Shown here: one piece after another, positions 41,419 through 64,000 of the stretch
Layout: every line of letters begins with the position of its first letter
Position numbering within the stretch: position 1 is the first letter of the stretch
NCBI GenBank assembly: GCA_033064195.1
Contig: JARBJD010000178.1
Span: forward strand, 1-64,000
Direction of reading: 5' to 3'
DNA: 64,000 nt
Source of the DNA: Blattamonas nauphoetae
Taxonomy: Eukaryota > Preaxostyla > Oxymonadida
The notes under the pieces: model-generated
The model's input: only the letters and a program-made list of their open reading frames with translations
Database searches by the model: none
What the model was told of the DNA's origin: nothing
Made by a program: the position numbers and the translations under genes

Positions 41419-41475
41419 TCTTTATTCAATATTGTTCAAAATTAGTACGAGAATTTCAATCAACTTCTTCGAGAT

Positions 41476-42439: not shown

Positions 42440-42546
42440 CACAATTTCTGACGACCTCTCGAAGTGATCAAAAGACCTCTCGAGAATCACGCTCAAAACA
42501 ATTATCTCTCTAGATATACTCTCCAACACAACTAATCGACAATCTT
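42440..42546 (+). promoter_or_regulatory. Duplicated 5' flank of type B gene, copy 2
   Basis: Counterpart of 31900-32010, immediately upstream of ATG 42547. Shares CTCGAAGTGATC and CTCCAACACAACTAATCGAC. Confidence 0.5.
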
Positions 42547-45500
42547 ATGCAATCTCCTCCGATGACACGTATCATAGCACCACCCACACCAACCATTCGA
42601 CGAGCGAAGACTCGAAGAATGAGACAAGTCCAGCTGCCTGACTGTCCTGAAGATGTAATTGAAAATCTGCACCGATATCCTTTACTTGTCTGGTATGATT
42701 TGACCGCATCAAACGATTCTGATGCGTCTCTGTTGAAGGACGATCACCCGAAAACCTTGGAATCGCTTATTGCATCTAAATGTGAAATTGGAGAAGAGGC
42801 TGAGTGGCAAGTATGCATTCTTTTGTTCATTTGCTTTTAATTCTTGCTCTGAATTCATGATTTTGGATTCTGTTTTGTTTCAGGATTTGATGGAATGGTT
42901 CGTGTGTGCCGTGATCGGACTGAACTCGAGAGCTTCATGGATCAGTGATTCGTTTTGGTTTGATTGGGATGATGTTTTGGTTGATGGATTTGGAACAACT
43001 CGGATTAGTTTGTCTCTTCTTCTTGACTTTCTTCTTTTTCAGATCTCTTCACCTCACATTCGGATTCATCCCATCCCCACTCCCCACAATCCTTCTCCGA
43101 TTGCATCACTCACCTCTCGCTGCTTTTTCTTTCTTTGATTGATCAACTCTCCACCTCAAACTGCCTCTCAAAACGCACTGCCCATCATTCTCCAAAAAAT
43201 GTAGTTTTGTCCGTACTTCACCATCTCATCGATCATCTTGTCAACACTGGCCATCTGATTCCCGCTAGTGACCCATCTGCGTTCAAAGCACACATCAGCA
43301 ATGTCCTCGCTCTCTATATTACCCATTTTCCAGACGATCAAAGTTTAGTTGGCGACTGGAAATGGATGGTTGTCATTGCATACACTCTTGTTCATACATC
43401 GGAAGACATAGGCATTACGAATCCCACGGTTCGGCTGACCGACACAGAAGCCGATCTTCGCTCTCCACAATTCACAAGATTCGTCCAACTTCTCGATAAT
43501 GAGCTTGTTGAGATGAAGAAACAATTTGATCCAAAGATGATTGAAGAAGCGAGACGGATCTCGTCGTGGAAAGAGTTTCTGGAGAAAGTGGCAGGCGGAG
43601 AGGAAGTTGAGGTGTGTCTTATTTTTTTGGACTTCGATTTTCAGAATGACACATCGTTCCTGAAAAAGTCGTTCTTCCGACCGACGCTTCTCTCGCTCCA
43701 AGCGAAGTTCCAACAATTGGCGTCGTCATTGGATGGATCAGATGGCAGTTCGACATCGTCTCTGCATTCATCGCACTCTTCTCCCCACACCTCCCTCGCT
43801 GCACACCACGACTCTTCTCTTCGGACAATCTCGTCGTCACCACACTTCAAACAGGAATCCCTCCAACTTCTGAACACCCTTCACTCTCTCCTCACCTCCC
43901 CTCTTCCTCCCTCTCTCCCAAAAAACTCTCCACTAGACATCTTCGCCACAGCATTCCCAATCTTCGAACATGATGACATCAGTCCCACAGAGCGATTCAG
44001 AACCGACATATTCGACGAGATCGACAACGAGAAACTGGCTCGTTCACTTCGTCGCTGTCGAACTGTCTGTGATCTCGTTGGTGCGGAGAGTTGCATTCTC
44101 GACATTCCTGAATTCTTCGATCGAACTGTCTCAGTTCTCGGTTCGTCCAACATTCAACTTCGTGCTGCTGCGTCTTCACTCTTCACAGATATGGTTGACA
44201 CCACATCGAGTTTCATTCCAGTCCTGCCTCATATTTGGGATCGACTTCGTTCAGCCTTCCACGATGGCCGCCACGAAGAACAGCTCGCCTTTATTCGGAT
44301 TTCGACGTGTTGGATCGTCCATAATTTGGGGACACATTCTCTGCCGCCGTTTCCAGCCAATCAGTTCGACTGGAATGGTTTGATCACGGCTGACCTGAGT
44401 GATAGCTTCACATTCATGTATTCCATCCTTCTGATCGCGTTTATCCGACATCGTTCGATCGAAGTTCAGATTGGGCGTGCCAGAGCGACATATTTCATTC
44501 TCTCTTTCGAGCGACATCAACGTGGGAAATCTCGAATCGTCTCCTTTTTTGAAGGCAATGAGCAAGTCAATGATTACCTTCGATTTTCTCAATCTCTCAT
44601 TTCGTATTGCCTTCTGATCTCGCTTCTATCGAATTGTGCTTTTCCTCCCATTCTCACCACATTCATCACACAAGATCCTGAAATGGATGCCATCGCCCTT
44701 TTTCTTCACGAGAATAACCTTTTCTTGCTCTGTCACACCTCTCTCAACCCACACACACCACTCCAGCCTCCTCTCGACCTCATCTTCGAGCGAACACTCC
44801 GAATGCATCCTTTCCTCTTCTTCACCTGTACCCGTGAGTTCGGAGACATTTCCCTCTCTCTCCTCAACACTGCGTTGTGTGGGTTTCATGCGCTCTGTCG
44901 ACGCGGAGTGCATTTTGATCTGATGGAGTCGAAAGATGTGAAAAGAGGCCATCATCATGCCAACACATTTTGGATGTTTTTCACTCATCACATCTCTCAC
45001 ACCTTTGATCTCTTTCTATATTTCCCACCTCCACTCGTCTCTCGTCTCTTCCTTTCCATTCTGCCATTGCCGGCCAGGGATTCACGTTGTGTCGACATTC
45101 TGAAAGTGGTTTTGATCCCTCTTCTCATCGCCACAGCTCCATTTGGCGATTGTCACAGTGTGAGAGAACTGTTCCGATCAGTTGATCAGCGGAACATCGA
45201 CGAAGAGAATCCACCTGAATTGTTTGTCAAATCTCATTGTCATGCTCTGGAATGGCTGAACATCCCATCTGGATTCGAGTCTGCTCTCGCCCACTCAAAC
45301 ACACGAAAGTCTTTCGATCGCATCGAAGACCAAGACAAACAACACATCACCAGCGACGCCTCTCTCCAACTCACTCACCATCCCTTAACAATGCTGGACG
45401 GTTTTTCGGAACAGGCGACCCAAACTATTGATCTAATTTTCCGATATGGTGATTTGGTTCGAGAATTGAATCAAGATTGTTTGTTTTTTGACTTTTCTTC

Positions 45501-45876
45501 ATCTCTTCAGTCGCTCTCTGGATTTTGAAACATGATATTCTTCATCCCTTTTTCAAGGAGATGCTGTGTGTCTTCTTCTTTCTCTCATTTCTTCAGCTCA
45601 CCAGTTCCAGCTGAAATGTCGGTCCGCTTGGAGTTCTTGAAGAGAGTTGTGAGTGTCGGCACTGTCGACAATGCAGTGGAGATGGTTCGCTTCGGGATGT
45701 TGGACATTGTGATTCGGGCAGTGTCGGAATCGTTGTTTCTGGAGGACTACGAAAACGGGATTTGTGTGATTGGGATTCTTCTTCGATCGATTTGTGACAA
45801 CATCTGGAAAAGAGGGTCGATCACGACAACTTTCTTAAACGAACCATCGCTGGTTTGTACAACTTCACTCAGATGA
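42547..45876 (+). CDS. Type B helical-repeat protein, whole copy (about 1,041 residues)
   Basis: Six exons join in frame: 42547-42810, 42884-43007, 43043-43611, 43645-45478, 45511-45565 and 45597-45876. Introns are 73, 35, 33, 32 and 31 nt; the 33-nt intron contains no stop, so unspliced RNA would stay open through it. Sequence landmarks: N-terminal RRAKTRRMRQVQLPDC, then SWISDSFWFDWDDVLVDG, a Ser/His-rich stretch, VLSVLHHLIDHLVNTGHLIP, SWKEFLEKVAGGEEVE, TLLSLQAKFQQLASSLDG, ESCILDIPEFFDRTVSVLG, CGFHALCRRGVHFDLMES, IATAPFGDCHSVRELFRS, WILKHDILHPFFKEML and FLEDYENGICVIGILLRSI. Mostly amphipathic helices; no signal peptide, membrane span or catalytic motif, so an intracellular solenoid is likely (inference). 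The stop overlaps the first bases of the DIRS element, so the last 15 or so residues may differ from the original end. Confidence 0.8.
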
Positions 45877-46003
45877 TCACTCTGCAGTGATCAGATTCAG
45901 CTTCGAGCTGCAGAAGAGTGAGATCAATCTCAGAAGTGGGCAATCAACACAACAATGGGCTAGATCTCAGAAAATTTTTCTTCTCATTTCAATTAACACA
46001 ACA

Positions 46004-47128
46004 ATGGCTCTAAATGATCAATTCAATGAAATGTTTAAAGCAAGGCTACAAGAATTGAGGGGCTTAGCCGTGGAGGTCTTTACAAGCGGCCTGGAACCGA
46101 ACTCCGGAAATGCCCGAAGATTTCAAGAAATGACCATGCCAACATACCTATACCCGGTTGCTGGCGCAATATTTCACCTACTACGGTTATTCTTAGTTGC
46201 GGTTGATCGTGCACTCGGCCTCAAGAGTGCCGAATGGGAGGCACCAATCGGAGGTGCACTTCTCCCTAATGTTGTGCAGCAGCGAATTGTGACGCCTCAA
46301 CCCTTCCACGAGAGTGGGGTGGACGGGGTGGAGACCCCCAATCTCGATAATGAAGGGCTTATGACTCCAAGAATCTTCCGAACACCACCACCCCAAGATC
46401 GGCACGTGGTGTTCCAGCCAGTCCCACTTCAGCCGCAGCGAGCCGTGACTCCAGTTCAAGAAGGTCACCTGGCGGATTTTGACGAGATGCAGGCCAGAGT
46501 GGAGGCCGTTGCCCGGGACCTCCCACTATTTGTCTGGGATAGTCAGGCAGTGGCAACTCTTAAGGAGGTTATGAAGTTAGCAGAAGGTTTCAAGTTGAAT
46601 AAGGACATACTGAGAAAGTATGTGACAAGACAGTCACGAGAAGGTGATGAGTTGTTGATTGCCCTTAAAAATGAGGCTTTCCATGCAGTCAAGCTTAGCA
46701 TAGGGTTGTTCAAGGCTGTCCGACAGGGGATGCCGTTTGGCCAGGCGCTGGCCCTCCAAGGCATGAAGGCAGCTGAGCTGGTCAGACGCGTGGAGCAAGC
46801 ACGAAAGGTTCTTAATTGTCGTGTTGAGCCAACAGTTGGAGACGACGAACAACAACAAGACAATGTCAAGCGGCAGGAGGAGCTATTGCAACAGGAGATT
46901 GAGCAGACGAGACGGGCAAGGGAGACTTCGGATGCGGTCCGCCAGGTACAACAACCTCGGCCCTTTCGGACCTCCTCAACTCAGCAGTGGGGGTTTCGGT
47001 CAGCAAACCAGCCAACTCGTTGGAACGCTGGCCAGTGGAATGCAAATCGGAGCCTGGAGCAACGCTATCAAAAGAGAACGTTCGTCCCCTTTCGCAATTC
47101 TCAACCAAAGAAGTCATCTCAGCAGTAG
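46004..47128 (+). CDS. DIRS Gag-like ORF
   Basis: About 374 residues from ATG 46004. Helical, with a Pro/Gln-rich middle (PPPQDRHVVFQPVPLQPQ) and a basic, Gln/Arg-rich C-terminus. Position first in the element and overlap with the reverse-transcriptase ORF identify it as the structural ORF1 of DIRS elements. No named domain is recognised. Confidence 0.75.
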   Translation: MALNDQFNEMFKARLQELRGLAVEVFTSGLEPNSGNARRFQEMTMPTYLYPVAGAIFHLLRLFLVAVDRALGLKSAEWEAPIGGALLPNVVQQRIVTPQPFHESGVDGVETPNLDNEGLMTPRIFRTPPPQDRHVVFQPVPLQPQRAVTPVQEGHLADFDEMQARVEAVARDLPLFVWDSQAVATLKEVMKLAEGFKLNKDILRKYVTRQSREGDELLIALKNEAFHAVKLSIGLFKAVRQGMPFGQALALQGMKAAELVRRVEQARKVLNCRVEPTVGDDEQQQDNVKRQEELLQQEIEQTRRARETSDAVRQVQQPRPFRTSSTQQWGFRSANQPTRWNAGQWNANRSLEQRYQKRTFVPFRNSQPKKSSQQ

Positions 47129-48852
47129 TGGAATTAAAAGCAGAACAGACATCTCACCCACTTCACAAACCATTTCAGACACAACACATTCCAAACACAT
47201 ATCACAGTCCACAATCAATGACAACGACGTCACATGTTCAGATCAAAAGCCAATCGTTGGATTCACATCACACTCCAATCCCCTCTTGTCTTCAATTGGC
47301 ATCGACGCCACGGAAGAAAGAGGAAGAGAGGATGCAGTTTACAGAGTTCTTCCGCACACAGGAGGAGGAGCGGAGGCATTGCGGTCTTGGTGGTTTCCTT
47401 CGCAAGAAAGCAGTTGCATGGGGGAAGCATGGATTAGCAGAGGAAATGCAGTTGGGGATTCACCTCCCGTTCCGAGGGAGACCAATAGGCAGAGGACAGT
47501 CACGATGTATAGTCAAGGGCCCGAAAGAGGAGGAGGCTATGAAGTGCATTGTGGAGATGGAGATCAAGGAAGGGATCATCGAAGTAGTCAAGGAGGAGAA
47601 CATCGTCCTTTTGAACAATATCTTCCTGGTCCCAAAGAGCGACGGAACCTTCAGGAAGATTCTGGATTGTCGCCCGGCCAACATGTTTCTTCCCGTTCAA
47701 CATTTCAAAATGGAGGGGCCGATGCTGGCCAAACAGATTCTGAAACGGGAGGACTGGATGACGAAGATCGACCTTCGTCTGGCGTACCAGCATGTTCCAA
47801 TCGATCCTCCATCTCGGAGGTTTCTATGCTTTGGCTTCCACAACAAGTACTACACACACTCAACACTTCCCTTCGGACTATCACTGGCTCCACTCATCTT
47901 CACCAAGCTGATGAGGTGTATTGTCAGTCGTCTTCGACCGTTGATGGACATCGTGGTTTATCTAGACGATATGCTTGTGGTGGGGAAGTCACAGCAGGAT
48001 GTGAGGGAGAAAACTTGGATAGCTATGACGGAACTCAGCAATCACGGGTTCACGATCAACAGCAAGAAGTCGGCTTTAGCTCCAACGCAACAGATCGATT
48101 TCTTGGGATTCACCTGGGACACGCAGGAGTTGAGCGTGAGGGTCCCAGCACACAAAAGGCAGAAGGCTCGGAACAAGATTCGACAAAGGCTGAACGAGTG
48201 TCGGAAGGGGAAGAGGTGCCGAGCTCTTTCTTTAGCATCTCTGATAGGCGTACTCCAATCTTTCGGGCTCGCCGAACCCCAAGCGCTGATCAGGACGAGA
48301 CAGATGACGGCCCGGAAGGAGGAGCTCATCGACGACGGAGGTTATCGTGTCAGGGGATTGTTGGGAAAAGAAGTTGTGGAGGAACTGGAGTGGTGGGACA
48401 GAAGACTCCAGGGAGAAATCAAAGGCTCGCTCAAGCCGTTCGTCCCCCTCTCTCATCCTGACGACAGATGCGTCGGAGTGGGGGATGGGTGCTCTGTTCA
48501 GTCGAGTCGGCCATCCTGTATTCCCATTTCAGCAGACATTTCCAGACAACGAATCCAAACGGAGCAGCAACTGGAGGGAGTTCCGAGCTGTGGTGTGGGC
48601 ACTGGTACAGGGAAGAAAGGAGGGAATTATTCAAGAAGGAGATCACATTCTCCTTCAGTCAGACAATTCAACCGTCGTGTACGACATCAATCGAAAAACA
48701 GGGGCCGTGACGATGATCAGACATCTCACGGAATTCTTCGAGCTTGTGGAATGTTTGAACCTGGAAGTACGAGCGACTCACATCCCTGGGGTGGAGAACA
48801 CGACAGCGGACATGCTGTCGAGAATTGCGGATGGAGGGGGACTATCGACTGA
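46987..48852 (+). CDS. DIRS reverse transcriptase ORF
   Basis: About 620 codons. A reverse transcriptase domain occupies the middle, with YLDD at the active site (VVYLDDMLVVGK) and the preceding LPFGLSLAPLIFTKLM block. The N-terminal part is Ser/His-rich. It overlaps the Gag-like ORF upstream and the RNase H/recombinase ORF downstream, an arrangement known in the family. Confidence 0.85.
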   Translation: MGVSVSKPANSLERWPVECKSEPGATLSKENVRPLSQFSTKEVISAVVELKAEQTSHPLHKPFQTQHIPNTYHSPQSMTTTSHVQIKSQSLDSHHTPIPSCLQLASTPRKKEEERMQFTEFFRTQEEERRHCGLGGFLRKKAVAWGKHGLAEEMQLGIHLPFRGRPIGRGQSRCIVKGPKEEEAMKCIVEMEIKEGIIEVVKEENIVLLNNIFLVPKSDGTFRKILDCRPANMFLPVQHFKMEGPMLAKQILKREDWMTKIDLRLAYQHVPIDPPSRRFLCFGFHNKYYTHSTLPFGLSLAPLIFTKLMRCIVSRLRPLMDIVVYLDDMLVVGKSQQDVREKTWIAMTELSNHGFTINSKKSALAPTQQIDFLGFTWDTQELSVRVPAHKRQKARNKIRQRLNECRKGKRCRALSLASLIGVLQSFGLAEPQALIRTRQMTARKEELIDDGGYRVRGLLGKEVVEELEWWDRRLQGEIKGSLKPFVPLSHPDDRCVGVGDGCSVQSSRPSCIPISADISRQRIQTEQQLEGVPSCGVGTGTGKKGGNYSRRRSHSPSVRQFNRRVRHQSKNRGRDDDQTSHGILRACGMFEPGSTSDSHPWGGEHDSGHAVENCGWRGTID

Positions 48853-50242
48853 AGCCCCACATCTTCCGGTCGATATGTCAGAATCTTCAAGTACATCCAA
48901 CACTGGATGCTTTCGCATCTTCGGAGAACCATCAAGTCCACCGATACTGCAGCTGGAAGAAAGACCCGAACGCCGTGGCAACAAACGGATTGATGTACAA
49001 TTGGGAAAGGGAGAAGGTGGTGTGGGCGTTCCCGCCCAACCCACTTCTCCTCCAAGTTGTGAGAAAGATTCAACGAGAGAAGGTGGCTACCCTCGTCATC
49101 GCAGTGGATTGGCCGACGTTGGTCGGACTGCGAGAGCTGAAGGAAATGGCAGAGGTGGTTTTGTCGATCGGGAATGCGGAGGACGTCTTGGAAGCAGGGA
49201 TGGGAGTGAAGGCAGCCGGAGCATCGATTCCGAATGGTCCAATGATTGTCTGCTTCGTGCCAAGGATGTCTGGGATGAATTAGGGAGAATGAAAGGTTTT
49301 ACAACAGAAGCAATGAAAATGTGGCGCAATGCTTACGCTGAAACGACTAGAAACAATTACGGTGGAATGATCCGAAGATGGGTGGAGTGGTGTTCTACAA
49401 ACCACAGGAGCTGGAGGGAACTGAGTGACTCAACAGTGGTTAACTTCCTCTCTGAACTCCCTGGAGGAACTAGGAATCGTGAACTTGGACCGGCAGCCCT
49501 TGGGTTTCTGTGCCGACATATTGGCGCTGATGATGTGAGTAAGGCAAGTGCCGTTTCTCTATTCATTCGAGGACAAAAGCGGAGTCAGCCACATCGAAGT
49601 AAGTATGGTTCGATATTTGATGTTGCTGAACTAGAGACTATTCTACAATCCGCAAGGCGAACGGCTACTACCCTCAGACAGCACCAGGCGTTGCTAGCAG
49701 TTCGATTGCTGGGCAATCACGGGCTGCGATATACTGAGATGCTCACCATCAATTGTGGGAGCATTGCCATTTCAAACAATGAGGCGACGATTGTTGTTTC
49801 TGCGGAGAGGAAGGTCTCTCGAGGTGTCCAGAAAGTTATCCTCCACGAGGAGACGGTTGTGGAGGAACGACGGTCCTCTCGTTTATTCAGATTTATTCTC
49901 CATCGAATGAAAGCAGAGTTCCCGACACAATGGGAGAAGACCATGTTGTTCTGGGACGACGAGAGGAGACGCAGCAGGACAGTGGAGGAGGTGCGAGCAC
50001 TGGTGGTGCCACTAATGACAGCTGCTGGGATTGACGTGAGGAAGTTTGGACCATATTCCATAAAACATGCGTACATCTCGGAACGCATCATGGATGGTGA
50101 AGGGTTAACAACGGTGGCGGAGAGAGCACACATGTCGGTGAAGTCTGGAGTGATGGAAAGACATTATGTGGTGCCGATCCGAGCGGCACAGGAAAGAGAT
50201 GGTGAAGAGGAGAAGAGCGCATCCTCATCAAACGCTGAGTGA
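48347..50242 (+). CDS. DIRS RNase H and tyrosine recombinase ORF
   Basis: The first third carries an RNase H domain (LTTDASEWGMGALFS, NWREFRAVVWAL, LLQSDNSTVVYDINRK, TADMLSRIAD). The last half is a tyrosine recombinase: core-binding helices (AYAETTRNNYGGMIRRW), the first arginine region (NHGLRYTEMLTIN) and the C-terminal block with SIKHAYISERI and the tyrosine in MERHYVVP. These replace the integrase of LTR elements and define the DIRS order. Confidence 0.85.
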   Translation: MSGDCWEKKLWRNWSGGTEDSREKSKARSSRSSPSLILTTDASEWGMGALFSRVGHPVFPFQQTFPDNESKRSSNWREFRAVVWALVQGRKEGIIQEGDHILLQSDNSTVVYDINRKTGAVTMIRHLTEFFELVECLNLEVRATHIPGVENTTADMLSRIADGGGLSTEAPHLPVDMSESSSTSNTGCFRIFGEPSSPPILQLEERPERRGNKRIDVQLGKGEGGVGVPAQPTSPPSCEKDSTREGGYPRHRSGLADVGRTARAEGNGRGGFVDRECGGRLGSRDGSEGSRSIDSEWSNDCLLRAKDVWDELGRMKGFTTEAMKMWRNAYAETTRNNYGGMIRRWVEWCSTNHRSWRELSDSTVVNFLSELPGGTRNRELGPAALGFLCRHIGADDVSKASAVSLFIRGQKRSQPHRSKYGSIFDVAELETILQSARRTATTLRQHQALLAVRLLGNHGLRYTEMLTINCGSIAISNNEATIVVSAERKVSRGVQKVILHEETVVEERRSSRLFRFILHRMKAEFPTQWEKTMLFWDDERRRSRTVEEVRALVVPLMTAAGIDVRKFGPYSIKHAYISERIMDGEGLTTVAERAHMSVKSGVMERHYVVPIRAAQERDGEEEKSASSSNAE

Positions 50243-50249
50243 CTCCCAA

Positions 50250-50332
50250 AAACTCACTCTTCTGCAGCTCGAAGCTGAATCTGATCACTGCAGAGTGATC
50301 GCTGATTTAGCGGAGAGCGAAGAAGAGTGACC
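50250..50332. repeat. DIRS internal complementary region
   Basis: It consists of the complement of the left terminus followed directly by the complement of the right terminus, meeting at GATC. In DIRS-1 such a region templates circular intermediates; here it is inferred by analogy. Confidence 0.85.
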
Positions 50333-50555
50333 GCCCTCCCGCCCAACTAGGGAACAGTTTAAAAATTGATTCTGAGCTTCTTCGCTCCGTTTTTTAAAGT
50401 TTTGTTGTTCTGTCTATGTGGTTAAGCGTTGATTTTGGGATTTGCTCTTCTTACAATTTCTTTTGGACCTCCCAAGGGTCTAGCCCATTGTTGTGTTGAT
50501 TGCCCACTTCTGAGATTGATCTCACTCTTCTTCGCTCTCCGCTAAATCAGCGATC

Positions 50556-52430: not shown

Positions 52431-54028
52431 TTAATCGTTCCATTCATTCCAAAATGGAGCGTTCCCACCCATTTCACTGATCACCCAAACTCGCACGGAG
52501 GCGATGCGACTTCCACGAAATGTCAGCCCACTGAAAGTGAATGGGAGCTCCATCTCATCCTCAAACCCTTCCTCGCACAGTCTGATCAGAATCTGCTGCC
52601 CTCGCTTCCGAACAACCGCATCTTCCATCTTCCACACGCTGACGGCCCTCACCACGTTTTGGAGGAGCTGACGAGTCGGGTTGTCCGATTCCCAGAAATG
52701 AAGAGAGTCTGTGTATGCGAGAGCAAACGAAGAAGACACCATGAACTGCGTCGTCTGGCCCATGAGCGGCGTGTATCGAAGGAGTGTTCCAAGAAGTGAT
52801 GAGAAATCAGACTGTCCTCTTTCTTCTCTGACTCGTCGTCGATTGTGGAATGCGAACTCCAAAAAAGTTTCGATCGGATGGAAAAAGTTGGTGATGTACA
52901 TTTCATGGATGGAGTCCATGGAAATGTGTCTGTTCCGACAGATTCTTTCCATTGTGCCAGAGTTTGAAGCGATCAGAATCCAGACCACAACTGTCATCAG
53001 ATCCAATGTCGATGGAGCTACGACATGCATGTCATGTTCATAGAATGTGTTTGGAAGGCGTTTGAAGAATGCTGTCTCGATGATGTTAAAGCGTGTCTCT
53101 TCTGTACAAATATGAACAACTCTTTCCAAGAGCAAGATAGTTGTCTTGACAAGTTGTATATTGGTTGATGTAATGAGCGGCAAAATAGATTCTGTGAAAC
53201 CTGAACAGGATCCATCGGGTGATGGAACAAGCTCGAAGAGAATCATAGTACCCGGACAAACCCGTTAGAGCGGATAAACCCGTGAACCATTCCACATGAG
53301 CATAGCAGTCCCCCCTCTTCACTAAAATTATCCTTCCACTTCCCGTTCATTACTCTCTTCATTATTTTTAAAATAGGAGTTACTGTTGAAAGAATGATTG
53401 TGAAATGGAATGAGAAAAATGTAGGTCGAAATGTGCTCGGAACTTAGCCAATGTCTTCCCAGGCGTCCAAGGGATGGTACATTGAGATGCAACCTCTTTG
53501 TACTCAGCATCACATGCAGGGTGTCGTGGCTGGTCATTCATCGATTTGAAATGACCCATAGACCTCGATCAAACATCTAACCAAGAGACCAATCATTTCA
53601 GAATTCTACCGATTACTTTCTTTTCCACACAACATATCAGTCGTCAGAATTAAAGGATCAATATGAAGTGGGGTATGTTGGTAACGGGTTTATCCGACTT
53701 AACGGGTTTATCCGGGTACTATCAGGTCTGTTGCTGACGGATCATCACAGGAGTACATTACCTTGTACAGTAGAGTGCATGCATCTTCAGTCGCTTGATC
53801 ATCCAGATTGTTTCCTTCCCTGACGAAGTCAACAAGCGACATGAATGGCTGAGCAAGTTGTTCTCTTGTTCTGCCATTTTCGTGTCTGGGTCCGTTTCTC
53901 CGTTGCAAGAGATTCCGGTTATGATGCCGATCTGGGCTGAAGGGTCGGGGGTGACGGTCTTGTTCTGAGTTTGAATTGTTTCTCATTGAGCAACGATTGA
54001 AATGAGATGGTTTTGATCCGAACCACAA
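52431..54028 (-). pseudogene. Type A helical-repeat gene split by a MITE
   Basis: The N-terminal piece 54028-53725 (QPFMSLVDFVREGNNLDDQA, CDDPSATDL) and C-terminal piece 53245-52431 (ILFELVPSPDGSCSGFTESI, FFHPIETFLEFAFHNRRRV, QQILIRLCEEGFEDEMELPF) join in frame as ...SATDLILFELV... once the 476-bp MITE and one TCA copy are removed. The order and motifs match the intact member at 14551-15654. The first Met (54028) is preceded by a Arg/His-rich leader and is uncertain. Confidence 0.75.
53246..53721. mobile_element. TGA-target MITE, copy 2, 476 bp
   Basis: Flanked by TCA at 53243-53245 and 53722-53724 (TGA on the gene strand). Ends TAGTACCCGGACAAACCCGT at left and, complemented, TAGTACCCGGATAAACCCGT at right. 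About four-fifths identical to the copy at 38899-39373 over the left 100 bases. Confidence 0.9.
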
Positions 54029-54218
54029 TTAAACATTCCCGGATATTCCTGATGAAGTTTGACTCTATCGCAATATAATTCACATTTCGAGGGAAGAAAA
54101 ACAGACTTCAGAAAAGTAAGAGTTATTCTAGAAATGATTGAAACAATAGATGGAAAACAATGATTTATCACAAGTTACGTCCAGTTCCTTCAAATGTCAC
54201 ATGTGACTGCCTCAACTC

Positions 54219-54292
54219 ACCCACAAACTGTAGACCAGTCTACCAACCTCGATGCGTGTAGATGTCATGTCACCTCCACACATGTGTAGTAT
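54219..54292 (-). repeat. Conserved 75-bp repeat, copy 1
   Basis: Matches 58518-58592 with about five differences. On the minus strand: ACATGTGTGGAGGTGACAT, then ACACGCATCGAGGTT, then GTAGACTGGTCTAC (a perfect six-base hairpin) and GTGGGTGAG. Flanking sequence is unrelated, so the block is the conserved unit. Nature unknown. Confidence 0.7.
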
Positions 54293-54794
54293 TTCATGCA
54301 TTGATTGAAAAGTGTGGTTGACTGATATTGAATTGACTGAAGTGCGAAATGGAAGATGTGTGACGTGGTGTGACGGATACAGCGATGGCAGCGCCTCGCT
54401 TGTTTGGTCGGCCAAACAACAAACAAATCGCACAAACAAAACAGAAAAAGACTGACAACGAACAAGAACGACACCAAACTCGGAAAAGACGACGGAAAGA
54501 ATAGATTGAAAGAGGTGTGTGTGGAGTGAAGCGATGTCGTAGTCGACTCTCTTCGTCCAGACGAGAATGGCCAGTCGGAAGTAAGAACTGCGAAAAACGA
54601 GAAATGATCGGAAAAAGACAAAAGAAGACAAGAGAGAAATAGGAAGAAGCAAAAGAAGAAGAAAAAGCAAGAAACAGGACAAAAGCAAAAACGTTGGGGA
54701 GAACGAGAGGAAGAAATGGAAGAAGTTGGCAGAATGATGAGAAAAGAAGAGGGCAGGCTGATAAAGAACAGAAAGGGGAGGAATCAGGAAGGGA

Positions 54795-55088
54795 TGTCAA
54801 TCCATCAAACACATCTTGAAGGCTCGGACGCTCTTTCGCATCAAACGAAAGGCATTTCGAGATCAACTCACGAATCGATGTGTCCAACACCAGTTTCAGG
54901 TTCGGCTGAACTCCTCCCTCGTTCTGACGACACGCATTCGCTTCGTCCATCTCTTTCCAAGGCACTTCTCCCGTCCAGACTCTCCCAACACTTCCACAAA
55001 CTCGTGTGTTACGATTGGAACTGAGATTGTTTGTGGATCGGGATGGTTCAAGTTCGGATTCACTGTTTGTTGCGACTTGATCAGACAA
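54795..55088 (-). pseudogene. Kinase C-lobe remnant of the receptor-like gene
   Basis: The frame reads VPWKEMDEANACRQNEGGVQ, then DTSIRELISKCLSFDAKERP and SLQDVFDGL, the end of a protein kinase domain (PW-GEMDE...CL..d...RPs...v). The ATP-binding lobe, HRD and DFG are absent, and the membrane-anchored part upstream ends in a different frame (EFVEVLGESGREKCLGKR). The kinase is thus reduced to its last 55 or so residues. Confidence 0.65.
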
Positions 55089-58000
55089 TCATCACTGTTC
55101 CTAACAAACTTCTCCTCCATTTTTTGTTCCAGTTCCAACCGAGTTTCGTCTTCATCGTTCATCTCTTGATTTGCATTTCGTTGGTTTGTTTCAGCATTCG
55201 TCTGTTTTCGACGGTGTTGGCAGACTAACACAACGATCACGATGAGAATGAGGAGACAGACGAGAGAGACGAGGAGAGGAATCCACCATTTCATGTTCTC
55301 CTTCACTGATTGTGCTGCTCGATCCACTGAATTCTTCTGAATCACAAACGATGTCGTCGTCTCGTTCTGTCCAAACACAACACGACCACGCCATTCCAGA
55401 CTCTTGTCGAATCCTGACATTGACGCCACAGACAAACTCATTTCGATTTGAGTCTCGTTGAACGATTTCGATGAGTCGACAGAAAGTCCAATCCGAACCA
55501 TCTTTCCCTCACTCCCATCTTTCTTCTTCTCAAACACTTCCAGATACAGTGAGCACGGAATCAGTGTCGTTCCTTTCATCGTCATTTCGAATGCTTGTGA
55601 GGTTTTGTTCAGCGTGCTCGTCGACGATGAAGAGAGTGTTGGGATGAAGAAAGGCGAGTTTGATATCTCCTCTTTCGCGGTGAGTGAACAGTCATTTTGA
55701 GAGATCCACGCTGATGGCGTCTCATTTCCATCTCCTCCACTCAGACTCCCAATCTCAATTTCTCCTCCTTCAGAGCATCGAATGTTGTGGCGAAGAGATG
55801 GGAAAGACGAGGAGTGAGGATTGTTCGAGTCAAACGAAGATGTGCAGATTATCAGCTTTCCTCCTTCCATGTTGATCGCTCCTTGTGATTGATGTCTCAA
55901 ATGAGTTGAAGTGATGTTGGTTGTGGCATGTTGAAGAACAAGCCCTCCTCCACTCCACATACACAATGAAGTGTCGGAATTGGAGGGTGAGGTGGATGTC
56001 GATGTGAGTGAACATGTCTCCATCGTCAAGTGTCCTCCAACCATTCGAATGAAGATCAGCGAAGGCGAGTCGGACAGAACAACATCAACTTGATGAATCC
56101 AAAGCCGACCTCCAACAACTTCAACCATTCCCTCTACTTCCATTTCTGAAGACAACGACGAAGAAGAAGCAGACACAAACAGTTCCGGTTTCGTCGACGG
56201 TCCTGATGAGATCACAACTTCATGATCAGATTCCATTCGCACTTGCGAGTTCTGCGTCGTGTTGTGTATGATCGACATCGACAACGATGAAATCCCAATC
56301 CCTTCCACAATCTTCCATCCATCCTCAATCCAACTGCACGGTCGCTTTCGATCCCCACACAACAACGTCGAATCTGATGTCGACCCACAATCCACGAAAA
56401 TAACAACATTATCAGGAAGAGAGCCTGTCGTGTTTGAGATTGCAGGATCGAACAAGGTCTTGCCATCTTCTGGATCTGTCGCTTCAATCGATGTGATTGT
56501 GTATTTCGTGTTGTGTTGGAGAGTCGTCGGCCATCCAATCAGCAGTTCTGTGGATTGTGCTTCGGTTTCTGAGGTGATCGTGGCGATGAAGGAGAGCGAG
56601 TCGTTCAGAGTCACATTCAGCGATTCTCCAACAATCAGATCTGTTCCACTCAGAATCACAAAACAGCCAGTGTGCAGAGTGTTCGAGAAGACGAACTCCA
56701 TCTGTGTGATCATCGGAGGGAATGGAACAACAATCTTGATTCCATCTTCCACATGAAATCCACTCGATTCTGTCCAGCTTCCTTTCAGCGTGTATTCTTC
56801 TCCGTATTTCAGTTGATCCGCTGTTTCTTCTCTTCCAACTGCGAACTCAGCTGTGCAGTGTGTGTCGCTTTTAACAACCATTGTCGACAATGATTCCCAA
56901 TTTGAGGTTCCATTCGTCAGACTCACGTTTCCTGTTCGAGAGAGCAGAACACGCCCTTCAAGTGATACAATCATCGTTGTCAGAGCTTTGTTGAGAACTC
57001 TTGTTTCCATTCTCACAATGCGAGCTGGTTCAATCGGTGTCTGGATTCGTGTTGTGCTGTCTTCAAAATGGATTGGCGTTGACTCTTTTGTGAAGCTCAC
57101 CACTCTGAATTCAGTGTCGTATTCCAGCTGTCCCTTCTTCTTTTCTGGTTCAGTCTCAAATGGATACAGTTGAGCACAATGGAGCGTGAGTTGTCCAGAT
57201 GGATTTGTTTCGAGAGTGATCACTTTCTGATGAGGTGTCGTCGCATCTGAGTGCACAGATTCCAATGTCAGTGAGAAGGTGGCTTCGCTTGGAAGAGCAA
57301 CCGAATCGAACGAGAATTCCAAAAAGTCCAGTCCAACTGTGCAAGCACCCACGCTGATGGAGAGGAGACGAGGAGGGACATGAATAGTCGTGAAGACCAA
57401 TCCACTTTCAAAGAAAACTGGCTTTGTTTCTTGTGTCACACCAACCACTTCGTATCGCGAGTTGTACGGCAAATCGATGGTTGCTGGATCTGAGGAGTCG
57501 AACAGAACAGCTGTCAATGTTCCACTTCCATCCCCATCGAACGATGCCAACAGAGTGACGTTGTCAGACAAACTCGAGTTCACAGAGAGAGTCAGATTGT
57601 AGTTCCCTTCCATCCCAATCCCCGAAAGAGAGATCATCGCATTCTTCTCGTCGGATGAATATTGAAGAGAATCATCGAGAGATGTTAGACGAGATGGTTC
57701 AGTCGGTACAGAGAATGTCACATCCGCATCCACAACCGAAATCGATCCATCAACTTCGAAGCGAGTGATCTGATATTTCGTTCCGAACGAGAGCAGAGGG
57801 TTGGCTGTCCCGATGATCACCACAGAGAGCGAATGCGTCTTCGATGAAGACTCACCAGAGAGCGTTCCAGACAGCTCAATCTCATCACCAACCAATGTCG
57901 ATCCTTCCATCTTCCGAACTCCAACACTGAACGTCTTCCCTCCGCCCAACTTCACTCCCGTCAGTGTCACCATTGCTGATTTCTGTTGGTCTTCTCCCAG

Positions 58001-58182
58001 CGAGCATCTAGCATTTGTGATCCGAATCGGTTCAGGCGGTGTGGAGAAAGCAGGAGCAGACACAATTGCCACAACTGATGAACTTTTCATTTCAGCAACT
58101 GCATATTCTGTTCCATATTTCAGAGTGTCTGTCTTGCCGTACACTTCAACGAGAACGAACCCAGCTGAAATCTCAGAGGATG
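54896..58182 (-). CDS. Receptor-like gene: six beta-sandwich repeats, beta-helix, membrane span
   Basis: About 1,090 codons without a stop. Six units of about 100 residues recur with the closing pattern GTEY.V..F......F....F.TP.EP.RI (LKYGTEYAVAEMKS; LSFGTKYQITRFEV; LPYNSRYEVVGVTQ; LEYDTEFRVVSFTK; LKYGEEYTLKGSWT; LQHNTKYTITSIEA). They resemble IPT or fibronectin-III-like sandwiches. From about residue 600 a Cys-led beta-helix follows (VDCGSTSDSTLLCGDRKRPC; LTMETCSLTSTSTSPS). A single span WWIPLLVSLVCLLILIVIVV with a basic stop-transfer (QHRRKQ) sits near 55220-55290; then a Glu/Asn-rich tail. Topology: outside N-terminus, short cytoplasmic end. Confidence 0.75.
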
Positions 58183-58668
58183 CAGTCATGGACAAAAGTT
58201 CTCGGTTTTCCTGTCCAGAAACACTGAGCGGTGAAATTTGGTTTTTATGTTGTCAGACACTTCATCATCAAAAAAAACCATTGTGGCGAGAAAATCAGAG
58301 CGAGCAGTTGTTTCATGATGGAGATACGGAAGAATGAAGGGTCTGAAAAAAAGTGACAAAAATATGTGCTCAACCACAATCGACAATTTTTCACACAGTG
58401 AGAGGTGGTGATGAGATGAGATCATTGATACCGAAATTAGCGAGATCCTCAGCCTCCTCCGCAAGAAAAAGAAAACATTCGTAAAAAAACGTCTACAGTG
58501 GAATGGTTCGTATTTCTCACCCACGAACTGTAGACCAGTCTACTAACCTCGATGCGTGTCGATGTTATGTCACCTCCACACATGTGTCGTTTCAGCATCG
58601 AACTCCTTTCCCAAATCGTCAGACCAGAGTTTGTCATTTTTCCTGCCGATCACTTTTGTCCATGACTG
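58183..58668. mobile_element. CAGTCATGG-ended element, 486 bp
   Basis: Both ends read CAGTCATGGACAAAAGT (the right one as complement), with further match CTCGG/ATCGG. ATG at 58180-58182 and 58669-58671 is a 3-bp target duplication. Its removal rejoins the receptor gene in frame. Contains the second copy of the 75-bp repeat (58518-58592). No ORF of note. Confidence 0.8.
58518..58592 (-). repeat. Conserved 75-bp repeat, copy 2
   Basis: Partner of 54219-54292, inside the 486-bp element. The GTAGAC/GTCTAC hairpin is kept. Most substitutions would change amino acids in the only shared open frame, which argues against coding. Confidence 0.7.
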
Positions 58669-59626
58669 ATGTCATGGTGAGAGATACGCTTTCAATTGGC
58701 AACTGAACGGTTTCCAGGGTGAGAGTGAGATCTTCTGAAGGCATTCGTTCTGTCGAGAGAGTCAGATTCAGAATGTTTGGACTGGATGACGAGAACACAC
58801 ACGAAAGTGATGAAAGAGTCGGGCCTAGTGGAGTTTTGAATGCTGTTGATGGGAACAGGATATGCTCGTCATCTTTCCCACTTTCAGTTCGCATCACCGA
58901 TTTGATCGTGTATTCCGTGTTGTATTCCACCTCTCCACTTCTTCCAATCTTCACTGTTGATGTTCCAGCACTTGGAGAGCTGAACGAAACTGCGAAGGAA
59001 TGACCTGATGTCAATGTCACTGTGAATGTCGAGCCAGATGGCAGATTCATCCCAGAAACAGAAAGTACGAAAGTGGACGAACTCACCTCCGTTTCAGGAG
59101 TCAGAGTGGTGATCCGAGGAGGATGAGGCACTTCAATGAACAGACCAGAGTTCACAGCAAATGACGACGAACCAGATCCAATTGACAACAATTCGTATTT
59201 CCCTCCAAACACAACATCCGTGCTCGACTCACTTTCCCCAATCGAAAAGTTCACAAAACACTTTGTCGATGTCACGTTGAACAACCCTCCACTCGACGCG
59301 ATCTGTTTTGATGTTCCTTTCAAAACAACAGGCAGTCCTGTGGTCGTCAGCTTCGTTCCAGTCAGCTCAACAATCACCACGTTTTTCTTTCCATTCAGTC
59401 CACAGTCAACTGATGTGATGCGAGGTGGTTCAACTGGTGTTGTGAATGACACCGAGTCCGCAAGCAGGATGTCTTGCTCCGGTTGACTTCCTTCTGGACG
59501 CCACCTCACTTTCGTCACTTTGTATTCTGTCGACCATTCCAGTCTTCCTTTTGCTGTCGATGGATGAAGAGGGGGTGTTCCGATCAGAGTGGTTGAGTCT
59601 GAGTGAGTGAGTGTGATGTTCATTTG
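58669..59626 (-). CDS. Receptor-like gene: three beta-sandwich repeats
   Basis: Frame of about 320 codons with three further repeat units: LEWSTEYKVTKVRW...VEPPRITSV, FGGKYELLSIGSGSS...HPPRITTL and VEYNTEYTIKSVMRT. These precede the six units on the other side of the 486-bp element and share their spacing. As a separate ORF it has no signal peptide or membrane span and is read as an internal piece of the receptor gene. Confidence 0.75.
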
Positions 59627-60220
59627 CAGGGGTTAGGCATTGTGCCCACGGTGCCCAGCTTTTTTGTGCTCAGGATGTAGCGGCTGTTCAAATTCCTTTT
59701 TCTTGCATTCTGAATCTTTTATAGTGTCCACATTTCCTGTGGATTTTCGAGCAAAACGGTAAAATCTCATTTCTTGCGAAAATAGATCGCACTGTTTTTC
59801 TAGTCACATTTTGAACACATTTAGCCCGAATTGAATGATAAAGAATTAAAAAAGGAGTCAATTATGTCGAAAATGAACGAGGTGACGAATATTCATGGTG
59901 TTTTATGTGATGATTATTAATCTCAGTGACACACATTTTTTTTCGTGGGGCAGATCCAGCCAAAATCATCCACACCTCTCCTCAGTGACTTTTCATTTTA
60001 ACAACCAGTATTTAACGATGAAATGAACCATCTTTCAAGAAGTGGAAAAAAACAAAAAAAATCTTCAAAAGGGGAATTGAACCCCTTTTGCTTGAACAAT
60101 CGCTGAAATCAGTCGAAATCGTGGCGCTTATTTTGGCGCCGGTGCTCAGCCCCCCGGACGACAAGCTGAGCACCGATGTGCTCAGCTTGTCGCCATTGTG
60201 CCCAGCTCACCTAATGCCTG
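59627..60220. mobile_element. hAT-like MITE, 594 bp
   Basis: Exact 8-bp duplication TTCATTTG (59619-59626 and 60221-60228). Ends CAGGGGTTAGG at left and CAGGCATTAGG as complement at right, followed on both sides by GTGCCCA/GGGCAC words and GTGCTCAGC motifs (GCTGAGCACCGGCGCC-type inverted repeats near 60140-60200). CAGG start and 8-bp duplication indicate hAT. Non-coding. Confidence 0.9.
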
Positions 60221-60905
60221 TTCATTTGCTTCCCTCCATTCTCAACCAGCATCCAATAACTCCCTTTTTTCAAGTTTGCCCCACTCACAACAATCTCTGT
60301 CGTGTTCCAATCTTTCAATGTTGAAGATGCTTCGAAAACGAACGGTCCGATGGAAACGATGATTTGATATCCTGTCACTGCTGCAGATCGGAAGACATAG
60401 TCAGCACGAGGCAAAACTCCATTCGGTCCAGACGAAACGACAACTTTTCCCAAGTTGGACGATGTTGGGAAGTTTCCGAACACGACATTGACGACTCGAG
60501 GAACATTCGACCCATCCAGCAGCACATTCATCGTTCCGATGATTGATTCAGCTAAAGCTACTCTCACTGTCGCCTCTTCTCCATCGAATGAAATATGTAG
60601 TGATTTGAGTGTGACGTTTGTTGTCGGATCGATTTGTGGAACGAGGGTGCTGTCTGCATTGTTGTCAGGATAGACACAAACATTTGGTTCGCCTGATGTG
60701 GAGTCGCAACACATGATCATATCAGACGTGAACTGCGTTGAAGCCAGACTGTCGACATAGACATCTTTGCCGTTCGGTTCTTCCGTTGAGGAGCATCCCC
60801 GGAATCGAAGGAAGTAGAGAGTCATATAAGTCATTCTGGAGATGGTGATTCCGCCAGCACGATAATTCGCAGAGCTGTCAATGAAAGCACTGTTTGCGAT
60901 TGTGA
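60221..60905 (-). CDS. Receptor-like gene: beta-helix end and first sandwich repeat
   Basis: Reads ITIANSAFIDSSANYRAGGI, FRGCSSTEEPNGKDVYVDS, CVYPDNNADSTLVPQID, then VRVALAESIIGTMNVLLDG and IVVSGANLKKGSYWMLVENG. It connects the N-terminal beta-helix to the repeat region. Interrupted upstream by the 790-bp element and downstream by the hAT-like MITE. Confidence 0.7.
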
Positions 60906-61695
60906 TAGTGGTGTTAGAAACCCGCTCTGGTCCATAAACCCGCAACCAGCGTGATAAATCCGCCACTTCATTTTTGATTGATCATTCATTTCTAATTGTC
61001 TCAACTGAGAGTCTTGAGAAGTTTTCTGGAAAAAGTGAAGAAGAAAAACACGTCTGTGAAATGCGACATTGAAATCAATGGGTCAAGATTCAAACCGAAA
61101 TCGATGTTTCACTAGCCAGGACTCGAGATATGACAGTCAACCAAAGAACTTGTTTCAATACACAATTCCAACGCTTCATCAATTTCACTCGACCATACTT
61201 CTTGAGATTCTGTCGTTCTCAACTTTATCATCATTTGTTCAGTTAGATGTCTTGCAATCTGTAAAACTCACACAAGAGAAGCTCTGATATTCAGAACATC
61301 CGGAGGAGGAAATAAAAACAAGGATCAAACTGACACTGACATCAGGAGGGCAAGATTGCAATGGTTCAGTTTCTTCTCTTCCGATCTTCCTTTGAATCAA
61401 AGTTTCATGAAGTCAAACCACCGATCCAACGTTCATTTGACGTTCACAACAACCGATTCAACAAGAAAATACAAACGAGGAGGGATATGATGACAATGCC
61501 GAGTCTCGAGAAAGATCAGTTTCAATTGCGTCACTTCACGATTTTTTTCGATAGATTTTTTCAAAAATGTGAGAAAAATAGAGGATAATGTGAATAAATG
61601 ATGAAAGAGTGAGAGTATGATGAAGATCGTTCGGTTGCGGTTTTTTGGACACCGGTTGCGGGTTTCTGAACGCGGGCGGGTTTCTAACACCACTA
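60906..61695. mobile_element. TGA-target element, longer relative, 790 bp
   Basis: TGA at 60903-60905 and 61696-61698. Ends TAGTGGTGTTAGAAACCCGC on both sides (right as complement), with repeated AAACCCGC words just inside (CATAAACCCGCAACC; CAGAAACCCGCAACC). Same target triplet, same TAGT start and same AAACCCG style as the 475/476-bp MITEs, but a different interior. Non-coding. Confidence 0.9.
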
Positions 61696-62066
61696 TGATC
61701 GCATGCGAACTGACTTTCATTGCTCCATCGTTTACTGCTGTTGATCGTTCGAAAAAGCAATCGTCCATCGTCATCGTGGATACACCATTGGCTTCGATAC
61801 TTCCCCCACATGTTCCTGTGTACTCCCCGATGAGCGTTGAACACTCCGTGAATGATGAGGCAGAGATTGTGAATGGATAATTTGAGTACACCGCACTCTG
61901 AAAATGGATTGCTCCCCCGTGATTGTAAGGCACTGTGCAGGTGCATTTGTGGAAGAAGCAAGTCCTAACGATGAGAGCGGAATATGTCTGATGGAGGACG
62001 ATCGCTGCTCCACCCCAACCAGAATTATCCTCGACTGTCATCTCGTTGAATGTGCAGAGAGTGACG
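61696..62066 (-). CDS. Receptor-like gene: beta-helix segment
   Basis: Frame with VTLCTFNEMTVEDNSGWGGA, YSALIVRTCFFHKCTCTVP, GGAIHFQSAVYSNYPFTI and TCGGSIEANGVSTMTMDDC. The GGAI/GGSI and F..C patterns are those of Pmp-like beta-helices. It lies between the 790-bp and 1.1-kb elements. Confidence 0.7.
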
Positions 62067-63183
62067 GTGACAGATGTGCGGATCCACGTTGACTACACAC
62101 TTTCGAATTTTTTGAAACAAATCAGAGAATAAAACCGAATAAGAAGTGAGATTCCACGACGCATCTTAATTTCTCTTCTAACAAGCTCTATAGTGATGAA
62201 CGGTCGGAACTTTCTTCTGTCATCATTATCTTCGAACATGTGAGGTTTCGGTTTGGTTGAACTGGAAAATAACAGACAGTGAATGTTTTGACGCTGAAAC
62301 TGGAGCTTGAAGGACAAACAACCAAAACACGGTAATATCCGACAATGTGATCAGATTGCTGAAATTGACTTCCCAATGTCTCGTGTGTCATTCAAAATAA
62401 TCTTATTCGACTTTGTTCTTGTTTTTAGTGATAGAACATCATGAGTTTATTCTCGCAAAGGATATGGTCGACTTCAAAAGTTGGTTCGAAGCAAGCACGG
62501 GAACTGAATGGTGACTGACTAGTATCAAGTCTGAAAATGTTGATAAAAAAGGGATCAAACACGATGAAGTTGGATTGTTATGTCTGGTGTCGTCTAATTA
62601 CGAATCGCCGTGAGGTGTCTATTGGAGTCTGTTTCTCCTGTGATTGACCCAGAAGAGCATCTGTTGGGAGATGATTCCTGAAAACAGCAAAGTTTTGTGT
62701 GATTTTTTGATTGATCATGTTCGTTGAATGAAATTGAACATTGAAATCGCCTGCTTTTGACAGGATTGGTTTGAGGAGTGTATTGTCCGGAAAATGGGTG
62801 AAATAAGTTGTCAACACTGAATATGTGGTGTTTGGTCTGATCATCCCTTCTATTATTGGAGATCAGGAAAAATACGGACTTCATTTTCTTCTGATCTAAA
62901 AATACCACGAGAGAGCTGAATTTGTGAGATATTTTGATGAAAGAGGTCACATACTCGGATATTTATAAGTGGAATTCGGTCTTTCTGTGATGGACAAGGT
63001 CTCAAAAGATGACGCTGTCGATTCGATTATTCTGAAATGGGCGAGCGAAATGTCAGAATCAAGGAATGAAATGGCAAAAGAAAGGGATGAGAAGTGATCT
63101 GCTCTTCCTTGTAGTGGTCACGACTCAATCTGGTGCGTTTTTGAAGATAGTGCGAAGTCATCGTGGATTCGCACAGATGTCAC
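62067..63183. mobile_element. GTGACA-ended element, 1.1 kb
   Basis: Left GTGACAGATGTGCGGATCCA, and right as complement GTGACATCTGTGCGAATCCA, followed by CG.TGACT.C.CAC on both sides: about 36 bp of imperfect terminal inverted repeat. It separates two beta-helix pieces of the receptor gene. A target duplication is not clear; sharing of GTGAC with the host may hide it. No gene recognised inside. Confidence 0.6.
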
Positions 63184-63945
63184 AATCGAGATTACATTGT
63201 CCAGACGTGCAGGAGTCGAGGTGTTTGTTCGGTTTTCGACTGAGAATTCTAATACAATGTTTCGTTCGCGGATGCACGATGAGAATGAGGTGTTTAAGCA
63301 CATCACATTCCCTCCCAAGTTCGCTGACATCATTCCTGTCCCGCTGTCGTGGTTGGTGCTATGCGACACTGAACTCCCAACAAGTCGCTGGTTCACTTCA
63401 CTTCCGAACAGCGGATTGTTTGGCGAGAGGGGAGATGACGATGAGACATTCACAAGAGTGCTCGAGAGCAGATCAGTTTCCATTCGAAGAGCACAACCAG
63501 AGGCTCCCAAACTGCATCCCTGTTCACTCACCCCAAACGAGAACAGAGGGCCAGTTCCAAAAATCAGATCCTTCGATTCCAAATTGAGGCCTGTTCTAAT
63601 CACTGAAATCCCTTCCATTTCAGCACCAACCAAATCAGACAAGTCCGCTGATCCAGACGAGACGAGTCGTGCGTGTCCATCCCCCACACCAACAAACGGC
63701 ACAATCCAGTCCGATCTTGAGTGATGTGTCACGTCACACAGCATCACTGTCGATCCCATGCATCTCTCCCCATTTTCAGATCCCATGATCACGAACGGGC
63801 AGATATCGCTGCTCGATGTGATCGAGCTGCACGAAAACCGCACAAAAGAGCCAGCCAAAGAGCAGATTGATTTCGAGTCCGAATTCACCAGCGCATGCAC
63901 TCCTTCAACACAAAACGTGCTGTTCCGAACATTAAACATGAACAT
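63184..63945 (-). CDS. Receptor-like gene: N-terminal beta-helix segment
   Basis: Frame with VRNSTFCVEGVHALVNSDS, RCMGSTVMLCDVTHHSRSDW, ALRMETDLLSSTLVNVSSSS and the family signature GGNVMCLNTSFSSCIRERN. No signal peptide is visible within the window; the frame continues towards the right edge, so the true start is probably beyond 64000 or in an upstream exon. Confidence 0.65.
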
Positions 63946-64000
63946 TGTGACTGTTGTTTCATGATCACTCGATTGTGGAGATCTGGGTGACGTTCTTGTT

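What the first reader, a model, noticed from the sequence alone, without database searches (positions are those of the whole stretch)
54294..63945. One giant receptor-like gene hit by four different transposable elements
Between 58.1 and 63.2 kb a single minus-strand gene holds elements of four end types (CAGTCATGG, CAGG/hAT, TAGT/TGA, GTGACA). At least three sites heal to a perfect reading frame when the element is removed. The coding pieces themselves remain open for hundreds of codons. Either these are very recent hits in a non-essential gene, or elements are removed at DNA or RNA level.
Basis: partly seen in the sequence, partly recalled or inferred. Interest (0 to 1): 0.75.

Follow-up and report, generated by a model that had tools for sequence, protein, structure and literature searches.

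The report
Receptor gene struck by four transposons
One member of a large family of receptor-like genes in a gut flagellate is interrupted by four different, very recently inserted transposons; this looks like ordinary insertion damage in a transposon-rich stretch, with no sign found that the cell removes the elements.

Summary
The genome matches Blattamonas nauphoetae. Four elements with terminal inverted repeats (486, 594, 790, 1099 bp) interrupt one minus-strand gene. Taking out each element plus one copy of its target duplication (ATG, TTCATTTG, TGA, AGAT) leaves one frame of 2150 codons; paralogous proteins run through the same four positions. Each element has an identical or nearly identical copy elsewhere, so the hits are recent and open coding pieces need no removal mechanism; exact healing is what any insertion with a clean target duplication gives. 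Against removal: 50 of 50 sampled insertions have exact target duplications, they are scarcer inside open frames than their own flanks predict, E1 shows no orientation bias, and a database protein from this gene starts inside E1. A fifth, non-transposon lesion (about 148 codons missing, with frameshift) damages the kinase-like tail. At least eight recent repeats lie in 40-71 kb, so four in this gene is not exceptional locally. Verdict: recent insertional inactivation of a probably dispensable family member. No transcript or raw-read data were available.

The parts
63179..64000 (-). 5' coding piece of the receptor-like gene (continues past the window to about 64290)
   Evidence: part of the healed 2150-codon frame; four paralogues start at the same place
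62076..63174 (.). E4, 1099-bp TIR element, TSD AGAT (62072-62075 and 63175-63178)
   Evidence: copy on C76 with one indel and no mismatch; 78 first-look candidates, 40 scored
61699..62075 (-). coding piece between E4 and E3, with one TSD copy
   Evidence: healed frame; weak beta-helix match in the longer open frame 61436-62092
60906..61695 (.). E3, 790-bp TIR element, TSD TGA (60903-60905 and 61696-61698)
   Evidence: 788 compared bases identical to a copy on C39
60229..60905 (-). coding piece between E3 and E2, with one TSD copy
   Evidence: healed frame
59627..60220 (.). E2, 594-bp hAT-like element, 8-bp TSD TTCATTTG (59619-59626 and 60221-60228)
   Evidence: two sampled copies 100% identical over 594 bp
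58672..59626 (-). coding piece between E2 and E1, with one TSD copy
   Evidence: healed frame; paralogous DNA 71-83% identical
58183..58668 (.). E1, 486-bp TIR element, TSD ATG (58180-58182 and 58669-58671)
   Evidence: five other copies with the same full score
54899..58182 (-). 3' coding piece: repeated modules, transmembrane segment, start of the tail
   Evidence: open frame; database protein P0001 begins inside E1 and covers this piece
54974..54983 (-). joint of the deletion in the kinase-like tail (about 148 codons missing, frame changed)
   Evidence: P0002 residues 1096-1243 and P0011 residues 1420-1568 have no counterpart
54798..54983 (-). remnant of the kinase-like tail in another frame
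   Evidence: 79-81% identical to P0011 and P0002 over 62 residues; weak kinase match

Best explanation
The gene is one of many copies of a receptor-like family in Blattamonas nauphoetae (beta-helix-like ectodomain with repeated modules, one transmembrane segment, kinase-like tail). It lies in a stretch dense with recently mobile repeats. Four TIR elements of four families inserted independently, each making its own target duplication (shown). Each is so similar to copies elsewhere that the hits must be very recent (shown). A separate deletion with a frameshift damaged the tail (shown by comparison with paralogues; its order relative to the insertions is unknown). The gene therefore probably no longer encodes the full protein, and the loss is tolerated because many paralogues exist (both inferred). 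The coding pieces stay open because there has been little time for point mutations.
For: Healed 2150-codon frame and junctions gapless in 20 of 23, 31 of 34, 23 of 31 and 24 of 30 paralogue alignments. 50 of 50 sampled insertions with exact target duplications. Identical or near-identical copies: E1 five others, E2 two and E3 one among those sampled, E4 one indel in 1100 columns. Large family: 46 matched stretches, one of them the gene itself, 40 of 122 candidates scored. Independent tail lesion. Protein departs at only 5 of 222 otherwise invariant columns. At least eight recent repeats in 40-71 kb (E1-E4; four others); four or more in this gene given eight: probability 0.20. A neighbouring gene hit by another element has its empty site in a paralogue 17 kb away.
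Against: Four disruptive insertions with no stop or frameshift from point mutation in 2150 codons requires insertion to be fast compared with mutation; the genome-wide insertion rate was not measured. Loss of function is inferred, not measured. The density estimate rests on 31 kb and on capped searches.
Confidence: 0.93

Rival explanations
1. RNA-level removal: the elements behave as introns (introner-like) and are spliced out, so the gene is functional.
For: All four sites heal exactly and the coding pieces show no decay. Introners elsewhere carry TIRs and TSDs (PMC9860276, passages). Frame-keeping GT..AG pairs near both ends exist for E1 (6), E3 (6) and E4 (2).
Against: No such pair for E2, and the others sit at scattered offsets (no comparison with random positions was made). 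Of nine distinct E1 sites in open frames 3 have the same and 6 the opposite orientation (L078 is a repeat of L066). Insertions are scarcer in open frames than their own flanks predict: 11 against 18.0, 6 against 14.0, 5 against 11.7 expected. P0001 starts inside E1 and no joined protein was found for this gene or for an E1-hit gene on C39.
Confidence: 0.03
2. DNA-level removal or polymorphism: the elements are cut out precisely in part of the life cycle or are absent from some cells of the culture.
For: Exact target duplications at all four sites make a precise empty state imaginable; very young elements could still be polymorphic.
Against: The four families have different ends and duplications, so no shared excision signal is seen. 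Most sampled copies lie outside open frames, 36 of 47 at the 60-codon test. No near-identical empty copy of this gene was among the 40 scored matches; the best other was 83%. No reads were available.
Confidence: 0.03
3. An old pseudogene that collected elements over a long time.
For: Four insertions plus a deletion and frameshift show that the gene is broken.
Against: No stop or frameshift in 2150 codons outside the elements; normal conservation at invariant columns; near-identical element copies.
Confidence: 0.01

Closest known systems
Non-autonomous TIR DNA transposons (MITE-like) inserting in members of large gene families
   Same: short elements without a recognised transposase gene, terminal inverted repeats, fixed-length target duplications, near-identical copies
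   Different: the four families here were not found described in the papers searched; E4 is long for a MITE (recalled)
hAT superfamily (E2)
   Same: 8-bp target duplications, 4 of 4 sampled sites; ends CAGG..CCTG
   Different: no hAT domain found in the two frames searched from longer relatives with the same ends
PIF/Harbinger or pogo/Tc1-like elements (E3)
   Same: TNA target duplication in 9 of 9 sampled sites; longer elements with the same 20-bp end encode a DDE_1 transposase
   Different: TNA suggests Harbinger, DDE_1 suggests pogo-like (both recalled): superfamily unresolved
Introners (TE-derived introns; PMC9860276, passages seen)
   Same: TIRs, TSDs and exact healing
   Different: no consistent splice sites, no orientation bias, scarce inside frames
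Kinase families and repeats of Monocercomonoides exilis (PMC8767320, passages seen)
   Same: a very large tyrosine-kinase family overlapping unclassified repeats; DNA transposons 4.52% of the assembly
   Different: another oxymonad; no sequence comparison was made

Membership tests
TIR DNA transposons (E1-E4) | terminal inverted repeats with target duplications of fixed length | tested here: met
   50 of 50 sampled sites: E1 3 bp (30), E2 8 bp (4), E3 TNA (9), E4 ANNT (7)
TIR DNA transposons (E1-E4) | a source of transposase in the genome | tested here: inconclusive
   DDE_1 in longer elements with E3 ends (L045, L046, L035); no Pfam match in the other seven of ten frames searched; E4 sources not looked for
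hAT (E2) | 8-bp target duplication | tested here: met
   4 of 4 sampled sites
hAT (E2) | hAT transposase in autonomous relatives | tested here: inconclusive
   frames of 367 and 151 aa (L017, L016): no Pfam match at 0.01; the 367-aa frame has no PDB match at E up to 1; only 1.5 kb of each end of the long copies was in hand
PIF/Harbinger (E3) | 3-bp TWA/TNA target duplication | tested here: met
   9 of 9; paralogues fit the 793-bp removal better than 790 bp: gapless 23 of 31 within 7 residues against 8 of 31 in a slightly narrower test
PIF/Harbinger (E3) | Harbinger-type DDE transposase | tested here: not met
   the transposase found is DDE_1 (PF03184), in frames from two contigs
Introners | splice sites at or near the boundaries in a consistent position | tested here: not met
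   E2 none; E1, E3, E4 scattered
Introners | common in coding sequence | tested here: not met
   11 of 47 sites in open frames against 18.0 expected from own flanks
Introners | removed from mRNA | not testable with these tools
   no RNA reads; gene models not joined is indirect
Programmed DNA elimination (IES-like) | two genome states, with and without the element | not testable with these tools
   needs raw reads or different life stages
Receptor-like kinase family of B. nauphoetae | homology along the whole extracellular part | tested here: met
   P0009 aligns over 1231 columns at 69% through all four joints
Receptor-like kinase family of B. nauphoetae | kinase-like tail in frame | tested here: not met
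   about 148 codons missing and the remnant out of frame

The most novel reading that the evidence does not exclude
Several unrelated TIR element families are removed precisely, at RNA level by a non-canonical mechanism or at DNA level in part of the life cycle, so that this 2150-codon gene and others like it stay functional despite the insertions.
Probability: 0.04. Interest if true: 0.85.

Novelty: new member of a known kind. Interest (0 to 1): 0.25.

Why it matters
It documents recent activity of at least four families of DNA transposons in an oxymonad and shows them breaking a member of a large receptor-like family, with clean empty-site evidence and target-duplication rules. I found no description of these families in the papers searched. 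If removal at RNA or DNA level were ever shown, it would be remarkable, and the four junctions are an easy test.

Tried and rejected
Removal as introns: not supported, on boundaries, orientation, frame depletion and gene models.

E3 with a 2-bp AT duplication was my first reading; it left a one-codon excess against the nearest paralogues, which the TGA reading removes. For E4 a 2-bp and a 4-bp ANNT duplication remove the same 1103 bases, so the frame does not decide; ANNT is read on the 10 copies (contigs C88, C618, C39, C124, C274, C192, C190, C160, C778, C76).

Recount: my first p values for the depletion test used wrong counts for the 80- and 100-codon tests and a control that still held this gene. 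One search repeats it without the three sites of this gene: 11 of 47, 6 of 47 and 5 of 46 sites open, against 18.0, 14.0 and 11.7 expected from each site's own flanks (simulated P 0.009, 0.0007, 0.002). Flank points are not independent and the sampled sites are not random (first-listed or best hits), so these are indicative; avoidance of coding DNA at insertion would give the same picture as selection.

Transposase search: ten frames from 9 of the 22 loci listed were searched; only the DDE_1 of E3-type elements was found. PDB: no match for the E2 relative, and E 0.42 or worse for the E1 relative. Rfam: nothing at gathering scores in 54-64 kb. Literature: searches for Blattamonas and for transposable elements with Preaxostyla, oxymonad or Monocercomonoides (10 of 85 listed) listed no paper on these elements by title; in the main text of PMC10703272 the stem 'transpos' occurs 0 times. 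Searches gave nothing used apart from PMC9860276 and PMC8767320. No preprints are held.

Limits: genome searches score at most about 40 candidates, so repeat counts are lower bounds. Signal peptide and transmembrane segment were judged by eye from the translation; no predictor was run. No structure prediction was made.
Full report
What genome this is. The window is bases 1-64000 of contig C88 of an 88.31-Mb assembly in 837 contigs. A published Blattamonas nauphoetae assembly has 88.54 Mb, 879 contigs and 44.96% G+C (PMC10703272, passages seen). In the first protein search 31 of 32 rows carry that species name; the remaining one, P0001, is the window's own and shows no source. In the two later searches all 39 and all 17 rows carry it. 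Oxymonads are called gut endobionts there; that the host is a cockroach is recalled.

The elements. Inverted repeats and comparison with other copies give the limits E1 58183-58668, E2 59627-60220, E3 60906-61695, E4 62076-63174. Ends in the genome: E1 92 forward and 99 reverse exact; E2 28 and 25 with up to 2 mismatches; E3 64 and 64 with up to 1 mismatch; E4 41 matches from 78 first-look candidates, 40 scored. Of 50 sampled insertions with both ends in hand, 50 have an exact target duplication: E1 3 bp (30), E2 8 bp (4), E3 TNA (9), E4 ANNT (7); 3 of the 50 are from this gene.

How recent. E1 has five other copies with the same full score as itself. Two sampled copies of E2 and one of E3 are identical over 594 and 788 compared bases. 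The fetched E4 copy on C76 differs by one indel and no mismatch in 1100 columns. Other copies of these families are older, for example 87% for many E4 copies and 89% for some E1 copies, so the families have a history, but the hits in this gene are young.

The gene. Removing each element with one copy of its duplication leaves a single frame of 2150 codons from 64335 to 54899 without a stop (a first version with a 2-bp duplication for E3 gave 2151). Among 54 paralogous proteins whose best alignment spans a joint, the alignment is gapless within seven residues in 20 of 23 (E1), 31 of 34 (E2), 23 of 31 (E3) and 24 of 30 (E4); 200 random codons gave a median of 0.77 and a 5-95% range of 0.33-0.97. 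P0009 runs through all four joints in one alignment of 1231 columns at 69% identity. The family is large: one 955-base piece gave 46 matched stretches, one of them itself, the others 71-83% identical, with 40 of 122 candidates scored and some genes matched in two stretches. Some paralogues have a recognisable kinase domain (P0002, P0010 and P0035 of the six scanned) or beta-helix domain (P0012).

State of the gene. Outside the elements the coding pieces show no decay: the healed protein differs at 5 of 222 columns that are invariant in the others; 19 chosen paralogues range from 0.7 to 29%, and three are lower. The tail, however, is damaged independently. Similarity to P0002 stops at its residue 1095 and resumes at 1244 in another frame, the two stretches overlapping by ten bases; P0011 shows the same gap (1419 to 1569). 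Other paralogues that match both sides end at other points, so the size is best given by these two. A deletion between short repeats is my inference.

Why healing is not evidence of removal. Any insertion that duplicates its target heals exactly when the element and one duplicate are taken away. Whether the cell does this was tested indirectly. (a) Of nine distinct E1 sites in open frames, 3 have the same orientation as the frame and 6 the opposite (L078, listed there too, repeats L066). (b) Frame-keeping GT..AG pairs near both ends number 6 for E1, 6 for E3, 2 for E4 and 0 for E2, at scattered offsets; they were not compared with random positions. (c) Without this gene, 11 of 47, 6 of 47 and 5 of 46 sites lie in frames open for 60, 80 or 100 codons on both sides, against 18.0, 14.0 and 11.7 expected from their own flanks, so insertions in coding DNA are selected against or avoided. 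(d) P0001, the database protein of the 3' piece, begins with a methionine inside the end of E1; no protein of 573-1822 residues joining the 5' pieces was found, nor one of 523-1662 residues for an E1-hit gene on C39. The published annotation used RNA-seq intron hints, but low expression could also explain unjoined models. None of this is transcript data.

Is four in one gene special? Taking repeats with copies at 98% identity or more, 40-71 kb holds at least eight: 45.87-50.55, 53.25-53.72, the four here, 64.56-65.43 and 66.02-66.91 kb. Given eight, four or more in this coding sequence has probability 0.20. By contrast the four families alone are sparse genome-wide by the counts above, so the cluster would look rare if judged by them only; the true genome-wide insertion density was not measured. 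The element at 53246-53721 breaks a neighbouring gene whose paralogue at 69-71 kb keeps the empty site: the joined frame is 372 codons against 374, 78% identical over 363 residues without a gap, while unremoved the longest frame is 277.

Conclusion. Shown: elements, duplications, youth, empty positions in paralogues, the extra deletion. Inferred: loss of function, tolerance through redundancy. Not tested: transcripts and raw reads.

Noticed in passing
53246-53721: A 476-bp element (ends TAGTACCCGGA, TSD TCA, E3-like target rule) breaks a second minus-strand gene; its paralogue at 69-71 kb of the contig (L062) has the empty site.
   Followed up: yes
L062:2022-2910 (C88:66022-66910): An E1-like element (TIR CAGTCACGGACAAAAG, TSD CCA) 2 kb upstream of the gene, 99% identical to a copy on C268.
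   Followed up: partly
L062:562-1430 (C88:64562-65430): A repeat just upstream of the gene with copies at up to 99% identity; its ends were not resolved.
   Followed up: no
45874-50554: A 4.7-kb repeat with large open frames, near-identical on C701, C46 and C55; not examined further.
   Followed up: no
54216-54301: An 86-base stretch 91% identical to the inside of E1, just downstream of the gene.
   Followed up: no
1-6000: Strong C over G skew (about -0.7) with long open frames overlapping on both strands, suggestive of low-complexity or tandem repeat DNA.
   Followed up: no
30700-33085 and 40532-43621: Duplicated stretches within the contig, 96 and 81% identical.
   Followed up: no
L045, L046 (C104): Two inverted copies of the same 348-aa DDE_1 frame between two E3-type ends 5.8 kb apart.
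   Followed up: partly
L084 (C39), L043 (C91): Other members of the same receptor-like family carry an E1 and an E3-type insertion in open frames.
   Followed up: partly
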